A DNA stretch of 64,000 nt from NCBI RefSeq assembly GCF_000426345.1, contig NZ_AUFE01000034.1:1-64000 (forward strand), written 5' to 3'. The notes beneath the pieces are model-generated. The model was not told the DNA's origin. It was given only the letters and a program-made list of their open reading frames with translations, and did not search any database. The first letter of the stretch is position 1; every line of letters starts with the position of its first letter. Made by a program: the position numbers and the translations under genes. Source of the stretch: Cupriavidus phytohabitans. GTDB taxonomy: Bacteria > Pseudomonadota > Gammaproteobacteria > Burkholderiales > Burkholderiaceae. This document shows, piece after piece, positions 1 to 3,052 of this stretch.

Positions 1-181
1 TGGGCGCCACCGTCGCCGTCGAGGCAAAGCGCTGACCGAGGTGGCCGCGCAGGTACCACACCACGCCGCCTACGCGCTGCAACTGCGGCACGTACACGTT
101 GAGGTACATCCGGTCGATGCACTCGCTTTCGAGCACGACGTGGTCGCGTAGAACATCGCACACACTGTGTGGTACCGTCAT
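1..181 (-). CDS. N-terminal part of an unknown protein, cut by the left edge
   Basis: The reverse strand encodes 60 residues from an ATG at 181 to the window edge with no stop. The frame contains the stretch ECIDRMYLNVYVPQLQ and then RGHLGQRFAS. From memory this resembles the start of a recurrent family of roughly 400-500 residue unannotated proteins found in many high-GC bacteria, often in several near-identical copies per genome. I could not verify this and know no function for them. The start lies just downstream, in the direction of transcription, of a strongly folded leader (185-425). A short palindrome (161-172) overlaps the first codons. No Shine-Dalgarno is obvious, because the ATG sits directly after the closing helix of the folded region. 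A transposon-like or RNA-associated element is possible, but only the beginning is visible. Confidence 0.55.
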   Translation of the reverse strand, partial: MTVPHSVCDVLRDHVVLESECIDRMYLNVYVPQLQRVGGVVWYLRGHLGQRFASTATVAP

Positions 182-184
182 GTC

Positions 185-425
185 TGGCTCCGGTCGTCCA
201 CGGGGTCTTCGGACCCCATTGAGCTTCGAGCTCGTACATCGCTGGGCTTGTCCCAGCCGGCTCGACCGGAGCCACCTTACCCCCTCAGCGCTCCGCAGTC
301 ACCCGTACTACTCGTCGGTCTGAGGCAGAGCCTCGTTAGTAGTGAAAGTCGCATGATGATGCCACCTTCCGTCAGCCCCGGCCTAAAACGAACGCGTTGC
401 GACTGTTTGCGAGTTTTCCACTCGC
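185..425 (-). ncRNA. Multi-helix structured RNA leader before the left-edge gene
   Basis: Perfect complementary segments stack here. A 12-bp closing helix pairs 185-196 with 263-274. Inside it are three hairpins: 202-207/212-217 with a TTCG loop on the + strand, 221-225/229-233, and 241-246/252-257. The result is a four-way junction. Further out, 322-326/330-334 forms a hairpin enclosed by 307-312/338-343, 348-353 pairs with 398-403, and 409-413 pairs with 421-425. In addition 283-288 can pair with 320-325, overlapping one hairpin as a pseudoknot or alternative fold would. The orientation is inferred from the leftward gene that begins 4 nt past the closing helix. I do not recognise the fold as a known riboswitch or intron. 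It could be an element-end structure, a translation-control leader or a functional RNA. Confidence 0.5.
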
Positions 426-504
426 TGATCGCCCTGCCACAAGATTAGGCGACATTGGCGAAGATTCCATGCAGAGTCAGTGGATGCGCCGCAGAGCGTC
501 CGGG

Positions 505-616
505 CAAGCAGCAAGTGCGAAATGCAACAAATTGTCATATCTGACGACTTATTGCATTTGGGTGATGCAGGCAGCAAGTGGATGCCATAAAGTGCCCCGG
601 CCTTTGTCGGCACTTT
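505..616 (+). promoter_or_regulatory. Repeat-rich upstream region of the loiP-like gene
   Basis: No gene is seen between the structured leader and the protease gene. Three symmetry elements occupy it. A 10-bp direct repeat GCAGCAAGTG lies at 508-517 and 571-580. An 8-bp inverted repeat AAATGCAA/TTGCATTT lies at 520-527 and 552-559, between the direct copies. An 8-bp hairpin AAAGTGCC/GGCACTTT lies at 589-596/609-616, just upstream of the start at 642. They may be a promoter with a regulator site, or the outer end of the element to the left. No regulator can be named. Confidence 0.35.
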
Positions 617-641
617 CCGGGCCTCTATCAACAACAACATC

Positions 642-1403
642 ATGAAAGCATCATTCTCTCTCACTACCTGCGCCATCGCGGCCGCACTGCTGGCCGGCTG
701 CTCCGCTGGCATGCCCACCAACATCGACGGCATGGTGTCCGCCGGCTCCTCGCTGGCCAAGGCCGCGACGCTGAGCGACGCGGACGTCAAGAGCCTGTCC
801 GACCAGGCCTGCGCCGAATCGGACAAGACCAACAAGATCGCCGGGGCCAATACCACCTACGGCAAGCGCCTGGCCAAGATCATGAGCGGCCTGAATGGCA
901 GCAACGTGCCCAACGTCAACGCCAAGGTGTACCTGACCAGGGACGTCAACGCCTGGGCCATGGCCAATGGCTGCGTGCGCGTCTACAGCGGCCTGATGGA
1001 CATGATGACCGACGATGAAGTGCGTGGCGTGCTCGGCCATGAACTGGGCCATGTGGCACTGGGCCACACCAGGAAGGCCATGCAGGTCGCCTACACCGCG
1101 ACCGCCGCGCGTGGCGCTGCCGTGTCGGCAGGCAACGGCGCGGTGGCCGCGCTGTCGTCGTCGCAGCTGGGCGAGCTGGGTGAGAAGCTGATCAACGCGC
1201 AGTTCTCGCAGTCGCAGGAAAGCGCCGCCGATGACTACTCCTTCGACCTGCTGACCAGGAACAAGGCCAGCACGCGCGGCCTGGTGACGGCGTTCCAGAA
1301 GCTGGCCAAGCTCGATGGCGGCAAGTCGAGCATGTTCTCGTCGCACCCGGGTTCGGATGACCGCGCCAGACATATCGAGGAGCGGATCCGCAAGGCTTCG
1401 TAA
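642..1403 (+). CDS. M48-family metalloprotease lipoprotein, LoiP/YggG-like
   Basis: A 253-residue zinc peptidase predicted to sit in the cell envelope. The first 20 residues form a lipoprotein signal ending in LLAGC, so Cys20 should be lipidated. The zinc site HELGH lies at residues 133-137, and a downstream ESAADDY segment supplies the third ligand, near Glu193. Length and order match the short periplasmic M48 family of E. coli LoiP (YggG), which degrades damaged or misfolded envelope proteins and is induced by stress. There is no C-terminal TPR extension, which separates it from BepA. The gene stands alone, followed by a strong hairpin terminator shared with the convergent uspA. The upstream region holds paired repeats that could control it. 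Confidence 0.9.
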   Translation: MKASFSLTTCAIAAALLAGCSAGMPTNIDGMVSAGSSLAKAATLSDADVKSLSDQACAESDKTNKIAGANTTYGKRLAKIMSGLNGSNVPNVNAKVYLTRDVNAWAMANGCVRVYSGLMDMMTDDEVRGVLGHELGHVALGHTRKAMQVAYTATAARGAAVSAGNGAVAALSSSQLGELGEKLINAQFSQSQESAADDYSFDLLTRNKASTRGLVTAFQKLAKLDGGKSSMFSSHPGSDDRARHIEERIRKAS

Positions 1404-1430
1404 TCTCGTAAGCCACTGGCAGCAGGCATG

Positions 1431-1467
1431 ACAACGCCCGCACCGGAGAGCCCGGTGCGGGCGTTGT
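1431..1467. terminator. Bidirectional terminator hairpin
   Basis: A perfect 16-bp stem pairs 1431-1446 with 1452-1467 around a 5-nt loop. It lies between the convergent loiP-like and uspA genes. Only short T tracts flank it, so it may work with Rho or simply as a strong bidirectional hairpin. Confidence 0.8.
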
Positions 1468-1490
1468 GCTTTCTGCGCAGCGGGTCGGGG

Positions 1491-1925
1491 TCAGCGATAC
1501 ACGATCACCGGGATATCGGTATGGGTCAGCACCTTCTGCGTTTCACTGCCGAGCAGCAGGCCGGACAGCCCGCGCCGGCCATGCGACGCCATGAAGATCA
1601 CGTCGCAGCCATGGCGCTCGGCCGCGTCGATGATGCCGAGGTAGGGCACGGCGAAGGTCGACATGTCCGCGTCAAAGGTGACGCCGGCCGCGGTTGCCAG
1701 GTTCTCGACTTCCTTCAGGTAGAGCTTGGCCTGGTTCTCGATGCGGTCCTTGAAGGCCTGCGGCGCCTCGACCACGATTTCGCTGAACGGGGTGTAGGGA
1801 TACTCCTCCAGGCAGACATAGGCCGTGACGCGCGCGCCGATGGCCTTGGCGAGTTCCAGCCCGCCGTTGATGGCTTTCTTGGAGAGTTCCGAGCCGTCGG
1901 TGGGTAGCAGGATGTGTTGGAACAT
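1491..1925 (-). CDS. Universal stress protein, UspA family
   Basis: A 144-residue single Usp domain, the usual family length. It starts at the ATG at 1925, which has an AAGGAG box just upstream; a longer in-frame extension to 2021 is proline/arginine-rich and unlikely. The N-terminus MFQHILLPTDGS is the typical first strand. The C-terminal glycine-rich stretch GRRGLSGLLLGS (about 116-127) is the nucleotide-binding loop of ATP-binding Usp proteins. The product is cytoplasmic and probably helps survival under stress. It is closely similar to the second Usp gene of the window (7418-7849), including the GCDVIFMASHGRRGL segment. The gene is monocistronic, ending at the shared terminator. Confidence 0.92.
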   Translation of the reverse strand: MFQHILLPTDGSELSKKAINGGLELAKAIGARVTAYVCLEEYPYTPFSEIVVEAPQAFKDRIENQAKLYLKEVENLATAAGVTFDADMSTFAVPYLGIIDAAERHGCDVIFMASHGRRGLSGLLLGSETQKVLTHTDIPVIVYR

Positions 1926-2101
1926 GCGGGGCTCCTTTTTTGACCAGGGATGGGGGCAGGGCTGCCGCCCGGCGCCGGTGGGGCGATGCCGGGGCGGAGG
2001 AAAGCGCCTGTCTGAATCCATTGTAGTCAGGGTGCCGAGTACGGCATTGTGCTAAATCAATTGCAACAAAAGCGTCACACCCCGGAGTCTTGCGCTGGCC
2101 G

Positions 2102-3052
2102 TCAGCTTGCCAGCGCAGCTGCCGCCGACACGGATGCCGCCTGCTCCGCCCGGCGCCAGTAGGCCGGGTTGCCGTAAGTGTTCTTCAGGTGGTCGATAAA
2201 CAGCCGCACCCGCAGCGGCAGGTGCTTGCGCTGCGGGAACACCGCATGGATGCCGATCGGCGGCGCCTGGAAGTCGTCCAGCACCGTGACCAGCCGGCCG
2301 CTGGCAATTTCGTTGCCGACTTCCCACCACGAGCGCCACGCCAGGCCGTTGCCCTGCAGGCACCACTCGTGCAGCACCGCGCCGTCGGTGCATTCCATGG
2401 TGCCGCCGACCTTGACGGTCACCGAGCGGCCGTCTTGCGTGAATACCCAGCCGCGCTGCACGTTGGCGCTGGCGCCAAAGGCCAGGCAGTTATGCCGCTG
2501 CAGGTCGTCCGGCGTGTCGGGGCGGCCGGCGCGGGCCAGGTAGTCGGGCGAGGCCACTACCACGCGCCGGGTCTCGGCCAGCCGGATCGAGACCAGGCTG
2601 GAGTCGGGCAGGTCGCCCAGCCGGATCGCGCAGTCGAAGCCTTCATTGACCAGGTCGACCACGCGGTCGGACAGGTCCAGCGTGATCGATACGTCCGGGT
2701 GGGATTCGATGAACAGCGGCACCAGCGGCGCCACGTGCTTGCGGCCGTAGCCGGCCGGCGCGGTCACGCGCAGATGGCCGCTGGCCTTGACGCCGCCGGC
2801 CGAGACACTGGCCTCGGCATTGTGCAAATCGTTCAGGATGCGCTGGCAGTCCTCCAGGAAGGCCGAACCTTCGAAGGTCAGGCTGATCTTGCGCGTGGTA
2901 CGTACCAGCAACTTCACGCCCAGCCGCTCTTCCAGCGCATCGATGCGACGCCCGATGATGGCCGGCGCCACGCCTTCCGCCGCCGCCGCCGCCGACAGGC
3001 TGCCGCGCGAGGCGACGGATACAAAAGTCTCCAGCTGTTTGAAATGGTCCAC
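2102..3052 (-). CDS. LysR-family transcriptional regulator
   Basis: A one-component DNA-binding regulator. The N-terminal winged helix-turn-helix contains AAAAAEGVAPAIIGRRIDALEE and is followed by the LysR effector-binding domain, which has the usual two-lobed fold. I place the start at the GTG at 3052 (fMet-Asp-His-Phe-Lys-Gln-Leu-Glu), because family members begin with that segment; an upstream in-frame start at 3118 would add 22 residues of low-complexity sequence. That gives 316 residues, normal for the family. It is transcribed away from the HAD-aceB pair across a 291-bp region, the usual LysR layout, so it may control those genes. Its inducer cannot be read from sequence. Confidence 0.9.
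   Translation of the reverse strand: MDHFKQLETFVSVASRGSLSAAAAAEGVAPAIIGRRIDALEERLGVKLLVRTTRKISLTFEGSAFLEDCQRILNDLHNAEASVSAGGVKASGHLRVTAPAGYGRKHVAPLVPLFIESHPDVSITLDLSDRVVDLVNEGFDCAIRLGDLPDSSLVSIRLAETRRVVVASPDYLARAGRPDTPDDLQRHNCLAFGASANVQRGWVFTQDGRSVTVKVGGTMECTDGAVLHEWCLQGNGLAWRSWWEVGNEIASGRLVTVLDDFQAPPIGIHAVFPQRKHLPLRVRLFIDHLKNTYGNPAYWRRAEQAASVSAAAALAS

What the first reader, a model, noticed from the sequence alone, without database searches (positions are those of the whole stretch)
1..425. Structured RNA-like leader directly before an unknown leftward gene: candidate new element
Seen directly: at least seven perfect helices within 240 nt. They comprise a 12-bp closing helix (185-196/263-274) around three hairpins that form a four-way junction, a nested hairpin and helix at 307-343, a 6-bp long-range helix (348-353/398-403), a 5-bp hairpin (409-425), and a possible pseudoknot (283-288 with 320-325). 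The closing helix ends 4 nt before the ATG of a gene with no recognised domain. From memory, proteins starting ECIDR-x-YLN recur in many high-GC genomes as unannotated multi-copy genes. Inference: the folded RNA and protein could form one mobile or RNA-guided unit, or the RNA could control translation of the protein.
Basis: partly seen in the sequence, partly recalled or inferred. Interest (0 to 1): 0.85.

Follow-up and report, generated by a model that had tools for sequence, protein, structure and literature searches.

The report
Unclassified transposon with structured mRNA leader
The folded leader is the start of a 1.8-kb jumping gene found across many bacterial phyla, whose unnamed enzyme looks more like a plasmid-replication nicking enzyme than like a known transposase, and the folded RNA probably keeps that enzyme's production low.

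Summary
The helices at window 185-274 are real and conserved. The genome has seven left and seven right junctions, all CTA-bounded; at one site three relatives read uninterrupted CTAG. The gene (~536 aa) has no convincing Pfam, NCBIfam or PHROG match apart from weak winged-helix hits; 172 stretches encode relatives, 80 fetched. Its N-terminal-domain model ranks a Rep_trans rolling-circle initiator, 4cij, first of 350,542 PDB chains (E 3.5e-3, low TM-score), and conserved D, D, Y-x-K, R-x-E fit in order; profile comparison found no sequence relationship. Leader helices covary; the closing helix holds a Shine-Dalgarno-like GGAG in 43 of 47 leaders. One symbiont genome has 504 left ends but five intact genes and six leaders, so mobility seems not to need the leader in cis. 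Best reading: a translation-limiting leader on a new transposon family with a Rep_trans-like transposase. RNA guidance is not supported.

The parts
1..339 (-). 5' (left) end of the transposon, cut by the contig edge; 337-339 is the CTA shared by target and element, the element proper starts at 336
   Evidence: 313-339 nt 100% identical at six other contig ends; seven left junctions; uninterrupted site in a relative
2..181 (-). first 60 codons of the ~536-aa putative transposase, including D23 (ECIDR-x-YLN motif)
   Evidence: ORF; full-length homologues L008, L009, L040
179..274 (-). structured leader ending with the ATG; covariance model R1
   Evidence: 78.8 bits, E 7.7e-14 (the window is one of the sequences R1 was built from); z -3.3
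263..274 (-). P1 closing helix, 5' strand (pairs with 185-196)
   Evidence: 93.5% of cells paired in 26 leaders, 7 of 12 pairs with two-sided changes
185..196 (-). P1 closing helix, 3' strand
   Evidence: as above; perfect complement
241..257 (-). P2 hairpin (257-252 with 246-241), variable among homologues, not tested for covariation
   Evidence: minimum-energy fold
221..233 (-). P3 hairpin (233-229 with 225-221)
   Evidence: 86.5% of cells paired, 4 of 6 pairs with two-sided changes
200..219 (-). P4 hairpin (219-212 with 207-200)
   Evidence: minimum-energy fold; weakly aligned across homologues (53.8% of cells paired)
188..191 (-). GGAG, Shine-Dalgarno-like, inside P1 3' strand, 6 nt before the ATG
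   Evidence: 46 of 47 leaders SD-like, mean unpaired probability 0.03
322..334 (-). 5'-terminal hairpin of the element (GAGGC-TCT-GCCTC)
   Evidence: stem pairs kept in 48-52 of 52 ends; A-T to G-C switch 31:21 at one pair
337..339 (-). CTA at the junction
   Evidence: at another insertion (contig C16) the uninterrupted site of three relatives reads CTAG
340..354 (-). host gene start (ATGCGACTTTCACTA), interrupted by the insertion; it resumes on contig C39

Best explanation
Window 1-339 is the left end of an insertion sequence of ~1.8 kb that inserts at CTAG. Layout: CTA | 5' hairpin, spacer, structured leader, ATG, one gene, then roughly 40-100 nt with a TTGACTCA-type motif, CTA | G. Shown: multi-copy, precise ends, CTA at both sides, uninterrupted sites in relatives, mini-elements that keep only the ends, leader covariation. 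Inferred: (1) the leader is a translation brake: the closing helix P1 buries the Shine-Dalgarno, so little transposase is made unless the helix opens (by transposase, antisense RNA or another factor, unknown). (2) The protein is a Rep_trans-like (TBP-fold, non-HUH) nicking enzyme with a C-terminal winged helix. It would use Y327 as nucleophile and D23/D152/E337 as metal ligands to cut one strand next to CTA at both ends and rejoin it at CTAG, leaving no duplication beyond the shared CTA.
For: Mobility: identical repeat at seven contig ends; 7/7 left junctions with CTA and 7/7 right with CTAG; one site (window/C39) uninterrupted in relative G217, same length as the two flanks joined on one CTA, though its own letters there are diverged; one site (C16) reading CTAG in three relatives; sharp ends between copies in four further genomes and between Burkholderiaceae records. 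Target: CTA before the 5' hairpin in 44 of 53 ends found (69 loci examined); of 62 right ends examined, 56 end in CTAG (45) or CTAA (11). Mini-elements: 504 left ends, 5 intact genes plus 3 fragments, 6 leaders in one genome; of 56 left ends in the fetched regions 40 could be closed into mini-elements, 37 with CTA on the left. Leader: covariation score 0.243 against 0.115 shuffled, 0 of 500 as high; 57 matches in 84 sources. SD-like motif in 46 of 47, median 6 nt before ATG. Protein: N-domain model pLDDT 89.4, pTM 0.87, top PDB hits 4cij_D (E 3.5e-3, probability 0.93) and 4cij_A; full model's BFVD hits A0A2N9QVX7 (E 1.1e-5) and A0A345MNV4 (E 1.4e-3), which PMC13107129 (passages) names as a viral TBP and an inovirus Rep_trans initiator and also obtained for its Rep-Arvir family. 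D23, D152, K329, R335, E337 in 45 of 45 and Y327 in 43 of 45; all invariant in the 9-sequence wider alignment. Y327 is predicted in a strand, as in Rep_trans and unlike HUH (PMC5714925, section 10).
Against: No detectable sequence relationship to Rep_trans: hhalign probability 0.1-0.7%. The structural matches have low TM-scores (0.25/0.35 for 4cij_D, 0.24/0.24 for A0A2N9QVX7) and large rmsd (12.9 and 26 A), and the PDB E-value is not below 1e-3. The Arg of motif I (RxD) and the Glu of YxKxxE are not met. The full-length model against PDB gave only MarR-type winged helices with high probability near the top. Y327 is missing in 2 of 45 (L047 H, L072 S). A lagging-strand orientation bias, expected for single-strand transposition, was not seen: 33+/44- where GC skew is positive, 7+/22- elsewhere, p = 0.11, with weak skew. 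TAnnnT before P1 in 6 of 47 (12.8%, shuffles 6.6%) is no good evidence of a promoter, so the transcript start is unknown. The SD count rests on leaders picked by the model, in which GGAGCC is conserved anyway. SD occlusion alone does not explain the inner hairpins.
Confidence: 0.65

Rival explanations
1. The leader is a guide or bridge RNA (as in IS110 or TnpB/IscB systems) that directs the protein to its target.
For: A conserved structured RNA next to a transposase-like gene, in the position of IS110 bridge RNAs (recalled); P2 is variable among homologues.
Against: Targets of seven same-RNA copies share only CTA and show no excess complementarity to the leader; the mini-elements looked at lack it; distant members lack it; no known RNA-guided nuclease or DEDD domain was found.
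Confidence: 0.1
2. The leader works as folded single-stranded DNA, an origin-like structure recognised by the transposase during excision.
For: The same sequence could fold as DNA (not computed); Rep_trans enzymes nick at hairpin-like structures (PMC5714925, passages).
Against: In the genome with 504 left ends only the five genes and one remnant keep it; the mini-elements retain only the terminal stretches.
Confidence: 0.08
3. The leader is a protein- or ligand-sensing RNA: the transposase itself (or a metabolite) binds the junction and regulates translation. This is a refinement of the best explanation more than an alternative to it.
For: Inner hairpins are conserved beyond what SD burial needs.
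Against: Found only before this gene in the two genomes searched whole, so a general metabolite sensor is unlikely; no binding data.
Confidence: 0.35
4. The protein is not Rep_trans-like; the element is a transposon with an unrelated, still unknown catalytic fold.
For: Low TM-scores and no profile similarity.
Against: Ranks 1 and 2 of the PDB search are chains of the same Rep_trans structure; BFVD hits of the same fold; conserved D, D, YxK, RxE in the right order.
Confidence: 0.32

Closest known systems
Rep_trans (PF02486) rolling-circle initiators and MOBT relaxases (pT181 Rep, RepSTK1/4CIJ, Tn916 and ICEBs1)
   Same: Predicted fold; order of D, D, Y-x-K, R-x-E; Tyr predicted in a strand
   Different: No sequence similarity found; C-terminal winged helix; gene sits in a minimal transposon; the review looked at (PMC5714925: passages and section 10) lists HUH enzymes as transposases and Rep_trans as initiators and relaxases
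Rep-Arvir (DUF7845) archaeal initiators (PMC13107129, passages)
   Same: TBP-like N-terminal fold, winged helix, two of the same BFVD hits, hairpin DNA partner
   Different: Archaeal virus and plasmid replication; sequence relation not tested
IS200/IS605 (Y1 HUH) with REP/MITE derivatives
   Same: Hairpin near the left end, no inverted terminal repeats seen, insertion at a tetranucleotide without long duplication, mini-elements (family traits recalled)
   Different: No HUH family or motif found; single ~536-aa gene; a right-end hairpin is not shown; no orientation bias shown
Transposase leaders of ISPpu9 and IS200
   Same: A folded 5' UTR that buries the ribosome site and limits transposase (ISPpu9: PMC8450116, abstract and passages; for IS200 this is recalled, the listing of PMC12594629 only speaks of a structured tnpA 5' RNA)
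   Different: Other transposase families; here P1 itself carries the SD and encloses three hairpins
IS110 bridge RNA elements (PMC11208160, search listing only)
   Same: Structured RNA upstream of the recombinase gene
   Different: Tests for guiding were negative here

Membership tests
Rep_trans (PF02486) | Match to the PF02486 profile | tested here: not met
   Not among the 12 Pfam families hit by any of 45 members at E <= 1 (HMMER filters drop most weak matches); hhalign negative
Rep_trans (PF02486) | TBP-like catalytic fold | tested here: inconclusive
   4cij rank 1, E 3.5e-3, TM 0.25/0.35; BFVD TBP-fold hits
Rep_trans (PF02486) | Motifs N' D, I RxD, II T/SxY/ExG, III YxKxxE, IV W/LxRxE (PMC5714925 section 10) | tested here: inconclusive
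   D23 (45 of 45), YxK (Y 43, K 45 of 45), RxE (45 of 45) met; the Arg of RxD and the Glu of YxKxxE not met; motif II not looked for
Rep_trans (PF02486) | Tyrosine-mediated DNA nicking | not testable with these tools
   needs a biochemical assay
IS200/IS605 | Y1 HUH transposase | tested here: not met
   No such family in Pfam or NCBIfam scans; no His among invariant or nearly invariant columns
IS200/IS605 | Hairpins near both ends, short fixed target | tested here: inconclusive
   Left hairpin and CTA target met; at the right end only a CAAG echo of TTG in 33 of 56, no hairpin test
IS110 / bridge RNA | DEDD recombinase and guide loops matching the target | tested here: not met
   No domain hit; no excess complementarity to 14 flanks
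Known RNA families (Rfam 15) | Covariance-model match | tested here: not met
   0 matches at E <= 1 in window 1-3000
Translation-occluding IS leader | SD inside a conserved helix | tested here: met
   46 of 47 SD-like, 41 of these with unpaired probability under 0.2; effect on translation not tested
Known IS family (ISfinder) | Similarity to a catalogued IS | not tested
   ISfinder is not available; RefSeq calls relatives 'hypothetical protein'

The most novel reading that the evidence does not exclude
A phylum-crossing class of transposons whose transposase is a Rep_trans/TBP-fold tyrosine enzyme: a route to hairpin-end, target-specific transposition besides the HUH enzymes, able to seed hundreds of leaderless mini-elements in one genome and held in check by a ~96-nt SD-burying RNA.
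Probability: 0.58. Interest if true: 0.88.

Novelty: new variant of a known kind. Interest (0 to 1): 0.78.

Why it matters
A transposon family seen in eight phyla by record title (phyla assigned from the names by me) is annotated 'hypothetical protein' where looked at, so its share of genome change goes uncounted. If the enzyme is a Rep_trans relative, replication initiators, relaxases and transposases share a second common fold besides HUH, and a compact CTAG-directed integration enzyme becomes available for study. The covarying leader is a ready model of RNA control of a transposase.

Tried and rejected
RNA-guided unit: set aside on target diversity, absence of complementarity, and leaderless mini-elements. 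Pseudoknot 283-288/320-325: not conserved. Helices beyond 339: host DNA. RNAalifold on the 52-sequence MAFFT alignment gave only seven pairs because the hairpins were misaligned; a 26-sequence subset, chosen by me for consistent architecture, was used with a hand-drawn structure, so its counts lean towards the structure; the 57-match alignment fitted to the model leans likewise. P2 was left unpaired in both. Sequence link to Rep_trans: three profile comparisons negative. Orientation bias: inconclusive. Promoter before P1: not shown. Viral contigs: 6 candidate stretches, none encodes a relative (single-protein query, close relatives only). The flank of contig C78 had no counterpart in nine relatives. 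For C16 the left flank matched relatives, but no right-hand contig could be paired. Literature searches showed no paper on this family or on a Rep_trans/TBP-fold transposase; I judged from listings, and only open-licence papers are held. PMC11109978 (passages) describes another repeated motif, MRSC-65-2, which I did not compare.

Rows dropped before counts: one search covered 73 of the 80 fetched loci (not L075, L077, L082, L086, L106, L107, L112) plus 11 other sources. One search used 47 of the 57 matches: left out were copies or close kin of rows kept (L008, L009, L010, L035, L074, L084, L118), the fragment L011, and the weak matches L097 and L113. One search left out one longer-stem 5' end (52 of 53 used). 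Its right-end count used 37 rows picked by hand; the recount on all 56 is and is the one quoted. In one search, 69 loci were examined for left ends and 62 for right ends, several from one genome. In one search the right-end pattern itself ends in CTA, so 39 of 40 on that side leans by construction; 16 of 56 left ends could not be closed.

Full report
WHAT THE REGION IS. The window begins at a contig edge (G000 contig C34). Its first bases recur at 100% identity, over 313-339 nt, at six other contig ends, the mark of a collapsed repeat. With a full-length relative as query, the same genome shows seven left ends and seven right ends plus internal pieces. All seven left junctions read CTA|ACGAGGC and all seven right junctions ...GGAATCTAG|. 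A relative (G217) lacks the element: the window's left flank and contig C39's right flank lie side by side there, in a small lipoprotein-like gene. Its letters at the junction itself have diverged and do not read CTAG; the length fits this genome's two flanks joined on a single CTA (the reading of the gene is mine). At a second site, C16, three relatives (G217, G202, G215) read CTAG where the element sits; no right-hand contig could be paired there.

FULL ELEMENT. Plasmid and genome relatives give the whole unit. Comparing copies within Thiosymbion, Thiocapsa, a Mycobacterium and a Vicinamibacterales genome, and between Burkholderiaceae records, yields ~1.80-1.86 kb with sharp ends (L008 is shorter by an internal deletion). 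Order: CTA, a 5' hairpin (CGAGGC-NNN-GCCTC, or CGGGGC...GCCCC in many actinobacteria), a variable spacer, the structured leader, ATG, a gene of about 530-540 codons, a TTGACTCA-type motif, and CTA|G. Left ends were found in 53 of 69 loci examined, 44 with CTA; of 62 right ends examined 61 had the TTGACTCA-like motif and 56 of these CTAG (45) or CTAA (11). These loci include several copies from the same genomes. In the 5' hairpin one stem pair switches cleanly between A-T (31) and G-C (21) in 52 ends. CAAG lies in the 12 nt before CTAR in 33 of 56 right ends, against 2.1 expected.

DISTRIBUTION. The genome scan matched 303 stretches, of which 172 encode relatives; the best 80 were fetched. By record title they include Pseudomonadota, Actinomycetota, Acidobacteriota, Chloroflexota, Planctomycetota, Myxococcota, Verrucomicrobiota and Armatimonadota (phyla assigned by me); many are metagenome bins, so some may be misplaced. 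In a sample of 200 genomes of the same order 3 had a match, the own genome and two of a distant branch, so it is patchy. That branch (L027, L028, L039, and a second gene in L038) shares ~25% identity; its ends were not determined.

PROTEIN. No Pfam family beyond a chance-level PapD-like hit (E 0.19) and no NCBIfam family matches two close full-length relatives; over 45 members Pfam gives only weak hits, mostly winged-helix. PHROGs gives only weak hits. In the distant branch one of two proteins reaches the HxlR winged-helix cut-off at its C-terminus. The full AlphaFold2 model (pLDDT 83.6) hits MarR-type winged helices in PDB and TBP-fold proteins in BFVD. The N-terminal domain alone (pLDDT 89.4, pTM 0.87) has RepSTK1, a Rep_trans rolling-circle initiator, as ranks 1 and 2 in PDB (4cij_D E 3.5e-3, 4cij_A 8.8e-3). 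PMC13107129 (passages) reports two of the same viral hits for its Rep-Arvir initiators, which it ties to Rep_trans by structure although no relationship is recognisable in sequence. Here too profile comparison is negative. The residues that never or hardly vary are in the Rep_trans order: D23 in the first strand, D152 at a strand end, Y327-x-K329 in a strand, R335-x-E337 in the next. Against: the Arg of RxD and the Glu of YxKxxE (PMC5714925, section 10) are missing, TM-scores are low, and I could not inspect coordinates. I put Rep_trans kinship at about two in three.

LEADER. The covariance model built from 26 leaders matches 57 of 84 sources at E <= 0.01 (the training sequences are among them) and, in the own genome, exactly the seven left ends. 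On the 26-row alignment 84.2% of cells pair (76.1 shuffled), 15 of 22 pairs have two-sided changes (9.2 shuffled), and the covariation score is 0.243 (0.115 shuffled; 0 of 500 as high); further pair types are only just above shuffles (29 against 24.9, 13 of 500 as high). Sliding the partner by one base drops pairing to 38-49%. P1 and P3 carry this; P4 is poorly aligned and P2 was not tested. On 57 model-aligned rows (54 distinct) the picture is the same. Distant members (L038, L039, L109, L114, L115, L117, L119) have no match.

WHAT THE LEADER DOES. In 46 of 47 leaders an SD-like motif (GGAG or GGAGG in 43) lies 3-9 nt, median 6, before the ATG, inside the 3' strand of P1, with mean unpaired probability 0.03. 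P1 changes on both sides at 7 of 12 pairs while the SD stays paired, which is what selection for a closed ribosome site could leave; the SD core itself hardly varies, so the two are partly confounded. ISPpu9 is a tested precedent: weakening its 5'-UTR structure raised transposase translation (PMC8450116, abstract and passages). The inner hairpins suggest a binding partner, perhaps the transposase; this is inference.

MINI-ELEMENTS. One Thiosymbion genome has 504 copies of the 5'-end motif at up to two mismatches (control 0), but five intact genes and three fragments and six leaders, five at the genes and one at a fragment. In 40 regions fetched around listed sites, 56 left ends were seen and 40 could be closed with a right end: 38 are 205-332 nt (extremes 95 and 578), 37 have CTA on the left, and 39 inner sequences fall into clusters of 17, 11, 8, 2 and 1 by linkage of partial matches. 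Several sit head to tail sharing one CTAG. So the ends seem to suffice for movement in trans, and the leader travels with the gene. In 800 kb of one contig 106 ends were found, 40 plus and 66 minus; no clear relation to GC skew (p = 0.11).

VERDICT. It is the regulated 5' end of a widespread transposon family that I did not find named in Pfam, NCBIfam, PHROGs, Rfam or the papers searched. ISfinder was not available. Guide RNA is unlikely; a translation brake is likely; a Rep_trans-type transposase is the best-supported and most consequential, but not yet proven, part.

Noticed in passing
L065 1-400, L041 3250-3510, L052 230-500: Shortly after the 5' end these elements carry an inverted copy (in L052 a partial one) of the same 5' end, making a long palindrome upstream of the leader.
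   Followed up: no
L179 160-1025, L074 5149-5398, L077 3139-3367: Head-to-tail arrays of mini-elements in which neighbours share one CTAG or CTAA, as if each had inserted into the end of the last.
   Followed up: partly
L027, L028, L039, L038 4760-6418: A distant protein branch (~25% identity, same invariant D, D, YxK, RxE in the members aligned), in RefSeq called 'ArsR family transcriptional regulator' (L039) or hypothetical; whether it is mobile is unknown.
   Followed up: partly
own genome contig C28 80602-80745: An internal piece of the element lies about 116 bases from a left end, in the other orientation: a decayed or nested copy.
   Followed up: no
window 642-1403 and 1491-1922: Next to the insertion: a protein with an HExxH metalloprotease-like motif and, on the other strand, a universal-stress-like protein (from reading the translations, no search made).
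   Followed up: no
5' ends, bases 3 and 17 of the terminal motif: Base 17 switches A to C exactly when the stem pair switches A-T to G-C (31 against 21, no exceptions in 52); may be clade history or a contact.
   Followed up: no
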